A DNA stretch of 64,000 nt from a bacterium (GTDB lineage Bacteria > Actinomycetota > Thermoleophilia > Solirubrobacterales > Solirubrobacteraceae), in the NCBI GenBank assembly GCA_021323635.1, contig JAJPKQ010000023.1:1-64000 (forward strand), given 5' to 3'. A model generated the notes under the pieces. The model had not been told where the DNA came from. It did no database searches and saw only the letters and a list, made by a program, of their open reading frames with translations. Made by a program: the position numbers and the translations under genes. Positions within the stretch are counted from its first letter, which is position 1, and each line of letters starts with the position of its first letter. Below, piece after piece: positions 17,173 to 20,190 of the stretch.

Positions 17173-17214
17173 AGGTTGGGAGCCTGCCGCCGATACTGGC
17201 CGCGAGAGAGGGAG

Positions 17215-17290
17215 ATCGTCAAAGGCATACCCGTCGCGAGGCGGGGACGCAAAGTCAGGGATCTCTATGAGACCGCCCGGCTGCCGACCT
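17215..17290 (+). promoter_or_regulatory. cyclic di-GMP-I (GEMM) riboswitch
   Basis: The stretch matches the GEMM-I aptamer closely. It has AAAGGCA at 17221-17227; a first hairpin CCCGTC-GCGA-GGCGGG with a GNRA tetraloop; the invariant GGGACGCAAAG block at 17244-17254; a second hairpin around GATCTC-TAT-GAGACC; and the closing GGCTGCCGA at 17279-17287, where TGCC pairs with GGCA and GAC with the upstream GTC. These are the nucleotides that form the c-di-GMP pocket and the tetraloop-receptor contact. It lies between the stop of the MFS gene and, 50 bp further on, the ribosome binding site (AGGGAGG, 17328-17334) and ATG of an exported protein. Whether binding turns the gene on or off cannot be told by eye. 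Confidence 0.88.
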
Positions 17291-17341
17291 CAAAGTCACA
17301 GTCGCTGCGAAGGGTCGCGGCGCGATCAGGGAGGTCCACAG

Positions 17342-17863
17342 ATGGTACAGGTCATCGCCCTTGCGTCCATTGCCACAGTCGTGCTGACTGCCGCGGCATT
17401 TGCGCTTGCCGCCCCGCCGGCGCCCCCGGCGGCTGCTGCGCGCCAGAGCCGATTGGCGCCTGAGGGCGCGGCTGCCGAAGTCCCGGCGGGGCAGGCGCCC
17501 TCGCTGCTGCCGGCGACGATCTCACAGCTGCCGGCAGCGGGCGACCAGGCGCCCGCAGCATACGGCCAGACGGCCGCGCCGCCATCCGGCCTTCCGGCGG
17601 CGGTGAACCTGATCGTCACCGTCCCGGTGATCGTCGGCGGCCTGCCCCAGCGCGAGCCGGAGGTCGTGAGCGGATCCGTGGCCATCTCGGGGCAGAGCTG
17701 GGAGGAGGTCGTGCAGCGACCCGATGCCGATGCGCTCGAGGAGCTGCCGGCGCAGCTTGCGCCACATCGCTATCAGCTGCCCGTCCGAGCCACCGCGCTC
17801 TCCGCGCCCCAGCTCCTGGCCGCTCCCGGCGGCTCTCAGGCGGCGGTGGACGTGGTTGCCTGA
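17342..17863 (+). CDS. uncharacterised exported protein under c-di-GMP riboswitch control
   Basis: A 173-residue protein with an N-terminal hydrophobic signal or anchor (MVQVIALASIATVVLTAAAF, then Ala/Pro), a long Pro/Ala/Gln-rich segment, and a C-terminal part with beta-like segments (NLIVTVPVIVGGLPQ, VVSGSVAISGQSWEEVV, HRYQLPVRATAL). It has no Cys and no recognisable family. AGGGAGG lies seven bases before the ATG, and a GEMM-I riboswitch occupies the leader. Genes controlled by this riboswitch class often act in adhesion, pili, matrix or wall remodelling, so a surface role is a reasonable inference. The frame is open upstream, but the earlier part overlaps the MFS gene and the riboswitch and is not coding. 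Confidence 0.75.
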   Translation: MVQVIALASIATVVLTAAAFALAAPPAPPAAAARQSRLAPEGAAAEVPAGQAPSLLPATISQLPAAGDQAPAAYGQTAAPPSGLPAAVNLIVTVPVIVGGLPQREPEVVSGSVAISGQSWEEVVQRPDADALEELPAQLAPHRYQLPVRATALSAPQLLAAPGGSQAAVDVVA

Positions 17864-17974: not shown

Positions 17975-18943
17975 GTGGGCGGACGCTCGGAGCAACCCGG
18001 CCTGCGCAGAGCGCAACGGACGGCCGAGGAGGGGTGGCCTGCGGTCAACTACGCCGACTGGTCTGAGACATGCGACACGCTGCACGCGCACACACAGGTC
18101 CTGGGCAAGCTTGCCGCGGCGCTCGCGCCACCTCAGCCGCAGCTCCAGCACGCTGCGCTGCGCCTGACCGCAAGGGGCTTCGAGACGCCGCCGCTGCCCG
18201 CACCAGATCGCTCGGGTGCGCTGGTGATCGGCCTTGACCTGCGCGCTCACGAGGCATTCGTCGAGCACAGCGCGGGCCGCAGCCTGCGGGTTCCCCTGAC
18301 ACCAGATGCGGCCGTCGGGGAGGTTGCGAGGGAGCTGATCGCAGGCACGAGGTCGCTGGGTGGCCGGGTGGAGATCGACACGACTCCCCAGGAGGTCTGG
18401 TGGAGCGTGCCACTAGACGCCGATCGCGAGCACGGCAGCTACGACACCGAGGCGGTGGCTTCCTACCACGCTGCTGCGACCAGAGCAGCGCTGGTGCTGG
18501 CTGCCTTTCGCGCTCCGTATCGGGGACGCTCGACTCCCGTCAACGCCTGGTGGGGATCGTTTGACCTGGCGGTCAATCTGTTCTCGGGGTCACCCGCAAC
18601 GCCGCCTTCGGAGGGCTTCATCATGCGCAACGCGATGGATTCCCAGGAGGTCGCCGTCGGCTGGTGGCCGGGAGATCCCCGCTACGGGAAGGCCGCGTTC
18701 TACGCATACGCGCACCCGGCCCCGGAGAGCTTCGCGCACGCCGAGATCTCGCCCGAGCCCGCTCGCTGGGAGGAGGCGCTTGGGGAGCACGTGCTCGACT
18801 GGGACGACGTCCGCTCAGGCGCCCATCCGCACGAGCGTGCTCTGCAGTTCGCGCGCTCGGCGTTTCGCGAGGCGTGCACGGTGTGCGAGTGGGACCCGGC
18901 GCTGCTGGCAAGCATGGAAGGCGCGCCGCCGCCAATCAGGTGA
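17975..18943 (+). CDS. DUF5996 family protein
   Basis: A 322-residue soluble protein that fits the DUF5996 family: an N-terminal NYADWSETCDTLHAHTQVLGKL block, the PLDADREHGSYD region, and the conserved NAWWGSFDLAVNLFSG and MRNAMDSQEVAVGWWPGD motifs. No enzymatic role is known for the family. The start is a GTG at 17975; about 25 residues precede the conserved block. It follows the riboswitch-controlled gene by 111 bp and could be co-transcribed with it, but there is no overlap to prove this. Confidence 0.85.
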   Translation: MGGRSEQPGLRRAQRTAEEGWPAVNYADWSETCDTLHAHTQVLGKLAAALAPPQPQLQHAALRLTARGFETPPLPAPDRSGALVIGLDLRAHEAFVEHSAGRSLRVPLTPDAAVGEVARELIAGTRSLGGRVEIDTTPQEVWWSVPLDADREHGSYDTEAVASYHAAATRAALVLAAFRAPYRGRSTPVNAWWGSFDLAVNLFSGSPATPPSEGFIMRNAMDSQEVAVGWWPGDPRYGKAAFYAYAHPAPESFAHAEISPEPARWEEALGEHVLDWDDVRSGAHPHERALQFARSAFREACTVCEWDPALLASMEGAPPPIR

Positions 18944-19038: not shown

Positions 19039-20190
19039 ATGGGCCGAGCTGAATGCGCGCCAAGCCGCAGATGGTCGCAAGAGCGGCTGGCGCTCATCCG
19101 CAGGCGGCCTGTGCGGCTGCTGGCCCTGCCGGCCGCCGCGCTGGCGCTGGGGGCGGCACCGGCGGGCGGGCAGGCGGCGCCTGCCGCGACAAGCACGACG
19201 CCGGCGCCCGGACCTGCGCCTGCGACCGAGATCACCCTGCAGCCTCGCCGCCACCTCGCAAACGGCGCCGCCCCTCTGCTCGTGCGCCTCTCGGCCCCAC
19301 TCGCCCCAGGGTCGCCGAGCCCGACGCTCGTGCCGCGTGTCGCAGGCAGCTGGCGCGCGGAGGGCGCCGCCGAGGTGTTCACACCAGCCTCCGCATTGCT
19401 GCCGTGCTCGCGCTACACGCTTGTCATCTCCGGGCGAACGCAGTCTGTCGGCCACGCTCCGCTCGGACGCCGGCGCAAGCTCCACCTCGCTGTCTCGTGT
19501 CCGTCGATCACAGCGCTGCAGGAGGCGCTGGCGCACCTTGGCTACCTCGATGCAAGGCTGCGAGCGGGCCGCCATGTGCGTCTGCCTCGGGCGCACGAGA
19601 GCCGCCGTGAAGCAGCGCTCAGCATCTTCAGCCCGCCGCCGGCGGCGCTTGTGACCTACCCCGCCAATGCCCCGCCGGTGCGGCGCGGCCAGCTGAACAC
19701 GATCACACGGGCGGCGCTTGAGGTCTACCAGTCCGATCGCGGCCTGAGCGTCACCGGCTCACCGGACAGGCAGACTTGGCTCATGCTGCTTGACGACCTG
19801 AGCACCGACCGGCGCGATCCGCGGCCCTACACCTGGGTCCAGGTCTCAGAGTCCCAGCCGGAGCGACTGTGGCTGCATCGCGGCGCTCGCGTGGCCTTGA
19901 CGACGCTGGTCAACACCGGCGTGGCGGGCGCCGAAACCCCGCACGGCATCTTCCCGATCTACCTGCGCTTCGTCTCGACATCGATGGCCGGCGAAGACCC
20001 CAACGGGACCAGGTACGACGTGCCTGACGTGCCCTGGGTGAACTACTTCTACGGCGGCGACGCCGTGCATGGCTACCCCCGCGAAGCCTACGGCTTCCCG
20101 CAGTCCAACGGCTGCGTCGAGCTGCCGATCGAAGCTGCGCGCACGATCTTCCCGATGCTGCAGATCGGCGACCTCGTGTGGGTGCAGTAG
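19039..20190 (+). CDS. exported L,D-transpeptidase (YkuD domain) with peptidoglycan-binding region
   Basis: A 383-residue exported protein: signal segment about 22-45, an Ala/Pro linker, a beta domain (about 63-150), a peptidoglycan-binding-like region (about 157-250, with TALQEALAHLGYLD and the later RAALEVYQSDRGLSVTG), and a C-terminal YkuD domain (266-383) with catalytic motif HGY (His344) and SNGCVELP (Cys359). It would form 3-3 crosslinks or attach groups to meso-diaminopimelate stems in the wall. The usual His before Gly-Cys is Asn here, a tolerated variant. The ATG at 19039 gives a normal signal peptide; the frame runs open upstream into the previous gene but is not coding there. Confidence 0.88.
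   Translation: MGRAECAPSRRWSQERLALIRRRPVRLLALPAAALALGAAPAGGQAAPAATSTTPAPGPAPATEITLQPRRHLANGAAPLLVRLSAPLAPGSPSPTLVPRVAGSWRAEGAAEVFTPASALLPCSRYTLVISGRTQSVGHAPLGRRRKLHLAVSCPSITALQEALAHLGYLDARLRAGRHVRLPRAHESRREAALSIFSPPPAALVTYPANAPPVRRGQLNTITRAALEVYQSDRGLSVTGSPDRQTWLMLLDDLSTDRRDPRPYTWVQVSESQPERLWLHRGARVALTTLVNTGVAGAETPHGIFPIYLRFVSTSMAGEDPNGTRYDVPDVPWVNYFYGGDAVHGYPREAYGFPQSNGCVELPIEAARTIFPMLQIGDLVWVQ

What the first reader, a model, noticed from the sequence alone, without database searches (positions are those of the whole stretch)
17215..17863. c-di-GMP-I riboswitch in front of an unrecognised exported protein
The leader contains all GEMM-I signature blocks (AAAGGCA, GNRA hairpin, GGGACGCAAAG, second hairpin, GGCTGCCGA) and ends 50 bp before a good ribosome binding site. 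The protein has a signal segment, a Pro/Ala-rich stalk and beta-like segments, with no family. This points to an unknown c-di-GMP-controlled surface function.
Basis: partly seen in the sequence, partly recalled or inferred. Interest (0 to 1): 0.75.

Follow-up and report, generated by a model that had tools for sequence, protein, structure and literature searches.

The report
c-di-GMP riboswitch before orphan exported protein
A real c-di-GMP-sensing RNA switch of a known class sits in front of a gene for a small, probably exported protein with no known relatives; the same switch precedes mostly pilin and secreted-protein genes in related soil actinobacteria, so the RNA is ordinary and only its protein and its likely "ON" wiring are new.

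Summary
The riboswitch is real. Window 17215-17289 (+) matches the Rfam c-di-GMP-I clan strongly: RF03167 62.7 bits (cut-off 59); RF01051 55 bits (cut-off 35). Homologues show compensatory base changes. Rfam's top label is "c-di-GMP-I-GGC", but that model has G at the A47 position and the window has A; the ligand contacts (G20/A47/C92) are canonical, so I file it as ordinary c-di-GMP-I.

The genome carries five copies plus 32 GGDEF and 8 EAL matches. Of 61 genomes searched (own plus relatives, Solirubrobacterales) 40 carry the aptamer. Target genes look exported or pilin-like in 73 of 85 cases, against 63 of 256 neighbouring genes.

The predicted platform is translational and ON: the 3' side of P1 (GACCUC) is complementary to the Shine-Dalgarno (GAGGUC). 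Enforcing the bound aptamer raises predicted SD openness from 0.16 to 0.69. Two congeners share the pairing; four other sites keep it with a one-base bulge.

The 173-aa protein has coding statistics but no relative in 23 congeners, a pattern scan of about 85,000 species genomes, Pfam, NCBIfam, PHROGs or PDB. Its N-terminus is hydrophobic but uncharged, so export is probable, not shown. AlphaFold gives no usable fold.

The parts
17215..17289 (+). c-di-GMP-I riboswitch aptamer
   Evidence: RF03167 62.7 bits (cut-off 59), E=2e-12; RF01051 55 bits (cut-off 35); compensatory changes in 8 of 21 pairs over 19 homologues, 0/500 shuffles reach it
17212..17218 (+). P1 5' strand GAGAUCG, extended stem with 17285-17291 (one A-C mismatch)
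   Evidence: sequence; core pairs 17217-17218 with 17285-17286 in the Rfam alignment
17224..17224 (+). equivalent of Vc2 G20 (ligand contact), here G
   Evidence: alignment; contact residues from PMC4744006
17236..17239 (+). GNRA tetraloop (GCGA) of P2
17251..17251 (+). equivalent of Vc2 A47 (ligand contact), here A; the RF03167 consensus has G
   Evidence: A at this position in essentially all 92 homologous sites, no G
17284..17284 (+). equivalent of Vc2 C92 (ligand contact), here C
17286..17291 (+). predicted anti-Shine-Dalgarno GACCUC, overlapping the 3' strand of P1
   Evidence: complementary to 17331-17336; same in L040 and L049, bulged version in L062/L063/L069/L078
17259..17266 (+). second possible SD-sequestering strand (GGAUCUCU, 5' side of P3)
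   Evidence: paired with the SD region in the unconstrained fold; the SD stays closed when the P1 anti-SD is mutated in silico
17303..17322 (+). linker hairpin CGCUGCGA-AGGG-UCGCGGCG, no T-run after it
   Evidence: fold; no terminator-like site
17329..17334 (+). Shine-Dalgarno GGGAGG, 7 nt before the ATG
   Evidence: sequence; SD detection
17342..17863 (+). orphan ORF, 173 aa: hydrophobic N-terminus, Pro/Ala-rich stretch, no family
   Evidence: coding score 0.106 per codon versus 0.095 and 0.156 for flanking genes; no relatives

Best explanation
A canonical c-di-GMP-I aptamer controls translation of a lineage-specific, probably exported 173-aa protein as a c-di-GMP ON switch. Without ligand, the 3' strand of P1 (GACCUC, 17286-17291), or alternatively the 5' strand of P3, pairs with the Shine-Dalgarno (GAGGUC, 17331-17336) across a linker hairpin, and ribosomes cannot bind. 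When c-di-GMP is high, the aptamer folds, P1 takes GACCUC back, the SD is freed and the protein is made. The protein is then likely placed at the cell surface as part of a sessile/adhesion regulon that in relatives includes type IV pilins and other exported proteins. Shown: the aptamer, the contact residues, coding character of the ORF, and the exported/pilin bias of homologous targets. Inferred: ligand binding, the ON direction, export of this protein and its role.
For: Aptamer: Rfam scores, covariation, G20/A47/C92 identities (contacts from PMC4744006). Signal in the cell: 32 GGDEF and 8 EAL matches in this 2.6-Mb genome. ON platform: predicted SD openness 0.16 free versus 0.69 with the aptamer enforced; only 2 of 35 leaders taken from other sites, and 2 of 200 SD-flank shuffles, reach that change. 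The GACCUC:GAGGUC pairing recurs in L040 and L049, with matched variants GAC-U-CUCC:GGAGGUC (L062/63/69) and GGC-U-CUCC:GGAGGCC in another genus (L078). No terminator-like site. Surface regulon: 73 of 85 aptamer-led ORFs look exported or pilin-like, versus 63 of 256 other coding-like ORFs in the same loci.
Against: No binding or expression data. The ON direction rests on thermodynamic folding; the permutation test over all long-spacer non-pilin leaders is only p=0.058, and 16 of 200 linker shuffles also reach the observed change. The N-terminal hydrophobic segment has no positive n-region. The ORF has no homologue, so it has no conservation support as a gene. The four other copies in this genome do not share the exact platform.
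Confidence: 0.6

Rival explanations
1. The switch works as OFF, or acts on transcription: c-di-GMP lowers expression through Rho or an undetected terminator, or by freeing a strand that closes the SD.
For: In the 'abutting' class of relatives the SD lies directly at the 3' side of P1 and the P1 5' strand is complementary to it beyond swapped controls (p=0.007), which would be OFF, so both logics may exist in this lineage. High-GC actinobacteria often use Rho (general knowledge).
Against: In the window the SD is 40 nt beyond the aptamer, is not part of P1, and folding favours ON. No T-run terminator.
Confidence: 0.2
2. The aptamer is functional but the ORF 17342-17863 is not a true protein gene (decaying or newly arisen frame), or its real product starts elsewhere.
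For: No homologue in 23 congeners or in about 85,000 species genomes; neither aptamer nor ORF beside orthologues of the downstream gene in 99 loci; low-confidence fold.
Against: Codon usage is coding-like in this frame only; SD and ATG well placed; hydrophobic N-terminus as in other targets.
Confidence: 0.15
3. The RNA is a 'GGC' variant with altered ligand preference, as Rfam's best label might suggest.
For: RF03167 outscores RF01051.
Against: The RF03167 consensus has G where the window has A at position 47; G20/A47/C92 are canonical in 87 of 92 homologous sites and none has G47; the genome is full of GGDEF genes.
Confidence: 0.05

Closest known systems
c-di-GMP-I (GEMM-I) riboswitch, RF01051, e.g. 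Vibrio cholerae Vc2
   Same: Secondary structure, GNRA loop, G20/A47/C92 ligand contacts; 55 bits against a cut-off of 35
   Different: Compact GC-rich P3 without the long Vc2 arm; host is an actinobacterium of Solirubrobacterales; target protein unknown
c-di-GMP-I-GGC, RF03167
   Same: Best covariance-model score (62.7, cut-off 59), full length 1-80
   Different: Model consensus has G at the A47 position; the window has A
C. difficile c-di-GMP-II switch upstream of a type IV pilin gene (ON; described in PMC4744006)
   Same: Works like it: c-di-GMP turning on a surface gene; relatives of the window's aptamer precede pilins
   Different: Different aptamer class; different, translational platform predicted here

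Membership tests
c-di-GMP-I (RF01051) | Covariance-model score above the curated cut-off | tested here: met
   55 bits, cut-off 35
c-di-GMP-I (RF01051) | G20, A47 and C92 ligand-contact residues | tested here: met
   G 17224, A 17251, C 17284 (contacts)
c-di-GMP-I (RF01051) | Three-way junction P1/P2/P3 with pairing kept by covariation | tested here: met
   93.5% of cells paired, 8 pairs with double changes, 0/500 shuffles
c-di-GMP-I (RF01051) | GNRA tetraloop in P2 docking into a P3 receptor | tested here: inconclusive
   GCGA loop present; receptor in P3 not verifiable by sequence alone
c-di-GMP-I (RF01051) | Binds c-di-GMP | not testable with these tools
   needs in-line probing or ITC
c-di-GMP-I-GGC (RF03167) | Covariance-model score above the curated cut-off | tested here: met
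   62.7 bits, cut-off 59
c-di-GMP-I-GGC (RF03167) | G at the position equivalent to A47 (my reading of the model consensus and of the name; the founding paper was not available) | tested here: not met
   A in the window; no G in any of 92 sites

The most novel reading that the evidence does not exclude
In Solirubrobacterales, one c-di-GMP-I aptamer has spread as a leader cassette in front of unrelated exported and pilin genes, with two opposite translational platforms: SD inside P1 (OFF) and anti-SD inside P1 (ON). The same signal would then swap one set of surface proteins for another. The window gene is a genome-specific surface protein recruited to the ON set.
Probability: 0.35. Interest if true: 0.55.

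Novelty: new member of a known kind. Interest (0 to 1): 0.35.

Why it matters
It gives a concrete, testable entry into c-di-GMP control of surface proteins and pili in Solirubrobacterales, for which the held literature returned no paper on c-di-GMP riboswitches. The same aptamer upstream of many unknown exported proteins is a way to predict which orphan proteins act in adhesion or sessile life.

Tried and rejected
Transcription terminator platform: none found. GGC variant with changed ligand: the position tested is not met. rsmX-like hit at 17297-17401: 15.9 bits against a cut-off of 56, chance. Homologues of the protein: weak hits in G021 and G001 are confined to the Ala/Pro-rich stretch; PDB hits are non-significant. 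Conserved neighbourhood: neither aptamer nor ORF beside DUF5996 orthologues. Structure: mean pLDDT 43.7, so no fold search was run. The founding papers for RF03167 are not held. Folding did not consistently predict OFF for the abutting class or any change for the pilin class, so the regulatory direction of those groups is left open.

Full report
Observation. Rfam gives it 62.7 bits to RF03167 (c-di-GMP-I-GGC; cut-off 59; E=2e-12 over the window) and 55 bits to RF01051 (cut-off 35). On 19 homologous aptamers the structure keeps 93.5% of pairs, 8 of 21 pairs show changes on both sides, and no shuffle out of 500 reaches these values; slid controls collapse to about 32-44%. The element is real.

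Which class. RF03167's consensus reads GACGC-G-AAG where the window reads GACGC-A-AAG. That position is A47 in Vc2, which with G20 and C92 contacts the ligand (PMC4744006). The window has G 17224, A 17251 and C 17284. In 87 of 92 homologous sites the triad is G/A/C, and none has G47 (some of the five exceptions look like shifts in my parsing). I take the "GGC" in the Rfam name to be these three identities; this is my reading, as the founding papers are not held. By that test the window RNA is ordinary c-di-GMP-I with a body that resembles RF03167 members.

Genome and relatives. The genome (G000, 2.6 Mb, 46 contigs) has five copies, 32 GGDEF matches and 8 EAL matches. Of 61 genomes searched (own plus relatives), 40 have the aptamer. 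Named neighbours of the downstream gene are mostly Solirubrobacterales soil genomes; one congener match has the same contig coordinates as the record of MAG palsa_744, so the genus is probably GTDB Palsa-744 (inference).

Regulon. Eighty-five of the 92 sites have an SD-led ORF within 150 nt. Seventy-three look exported or pilin-like by N-terminal hydrophobicity, against 63 of 256 other coding-like ORFs in the same loci. Seventeen long-spacer targets carry a type IV pilin signature (such as FTLIELLVVILIIGILAAIALP; grouping; N_methyl PF07963 confirmed for one). In the own genome the other four targets are a long exported protein (C38), a camelysin-like protein (C33), a large exported protein (C24) and a collagen-like protein (C30).

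Expression platform in the window. P1 extends to GAGAUCG/CGACCUC (17212-17218 with 17285-17291). Its 3' strand GACCUC (17286-17291) is perfectly complementary to GAGGUC in the SD (17331-17336), across a linker hairpin at 17303-17322. The SD is predicted 0.16 open in the free RNA and 0.69 open when the aptamer is enforced. Only 2 of 35 leaders from other sites grafted on this aptamer, and 2 of 200 SD-flank shuffles, change as much; 16 of 200 linker shuffles do. Mutating the P1 anti-SD in silico does not open the free form, probably because the 5' strand of P3 (17259-17266) can also pair with the SD; both pairings exclude the folded aptamer, so the ON prediction holds either way. The same arrangement with a linker hairpin occurs in L040 and L049 (same pairing), in L062, L063 and L069 (one-base bulge), and in L078 from another genus with a matched change to GGC/GGAGGCC. 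For the heterogeneous group of 22 long-spacer non-pilin leaders as a whole the swap test is p=0.058. There is no terminator-like site. I therefore propose a translational ON switch, with moderate confidence.

The protein. ORF 17342-17863 scores 0.106 per codon, like the DUF5996 gene next door (0.095), and the competing frames score below zero. It has no match in Pfam, NCBIfam, PHROGs or PDB, none in 23 congeners beyond low-complexity hits, and none in the pattern-plus-tblastn scan of genome contigs. That scan uses short exact peptides and would miss diverged relatives. The N-terminal segment is hydrophobic (17-residue mean up to 2.4) but lacks a positive n-region. AlphaFold without an alignment gives mean pLDDT 43.7 with a tentative beta hairpin at residues 86-117. 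The aptamer is closest in DNA to those in front of the congeners' MPYI-type exported family (83-91% identity, ending at the P1 3' strand) while the protein is unrelated. That is consistent with a leader joined to a different gene.

Verdict. It is a new member of a known riboswitch class in front of an orphan gene. The interest lies in the lineage-wide surface regulon and the predicted ON wiring, not in the class itself.

Noticed in passing
L040-L131 (92 aptamer sites): Aptamer-to-start distances fall into three classes (7-16, 17-24 and 28-93 nt) with different target types; the shortest class has the SD immediately 3' of the aptamer with P1 5'-strand complementarity (p=0.007), suggesting OFF switches beside ON switches.
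   Followed up: partly
L046, L054, L068, L079, L082, L104, L112: In the mid-spacer class the P3 3' strand (GAUAGCUC) is complementary to the SD and what follows (GAGGGCUAUC), a different way of closing the SD.
   Followed up: partly
G009:C1:406532-406609 and 407708-407785 (L047, L109): Two c-di-GMP-I aptamers about 1.2 kb apart, the second leading an exported protein of a family found behind the aptamer in several congeners (SQPF...GDSNYY...GWTLSGGA), with no Pfam match.
   Followed up: partly
L121 (G000:C30), window genome: Collagen-like GPTGATG-repeat protein directly under a c-di-GMP-I aptamer; the contig ends inside it.
   Followed up: no
window 17975-18943: DUF5996 protein (PF19459, E=2.7e-82) directly downstream on the same strand; its orthologues in other genomes lack the aptamer and the orphan ORF.
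   Followed up: yes
window about 19053-20190: L,D-transpeptidase (YkuD) with a peptidoglycan-binding domain, same strand, a cell-wall enzyme downstream of the orphan gene.
   Followed up: no
window 1-64000: GACCTC/GAGGTC occurs 79 times against 39 expected from dinucleotide shuffles; codon usage may explain it.
   Followed up: no
L130 (G030:C7:35927-36000): Weak aptamer-like hit (35.6 bits) in front of a ClpC-like protein; J1/2 is degraded and it may be a relic or chance.
   Followed up: no
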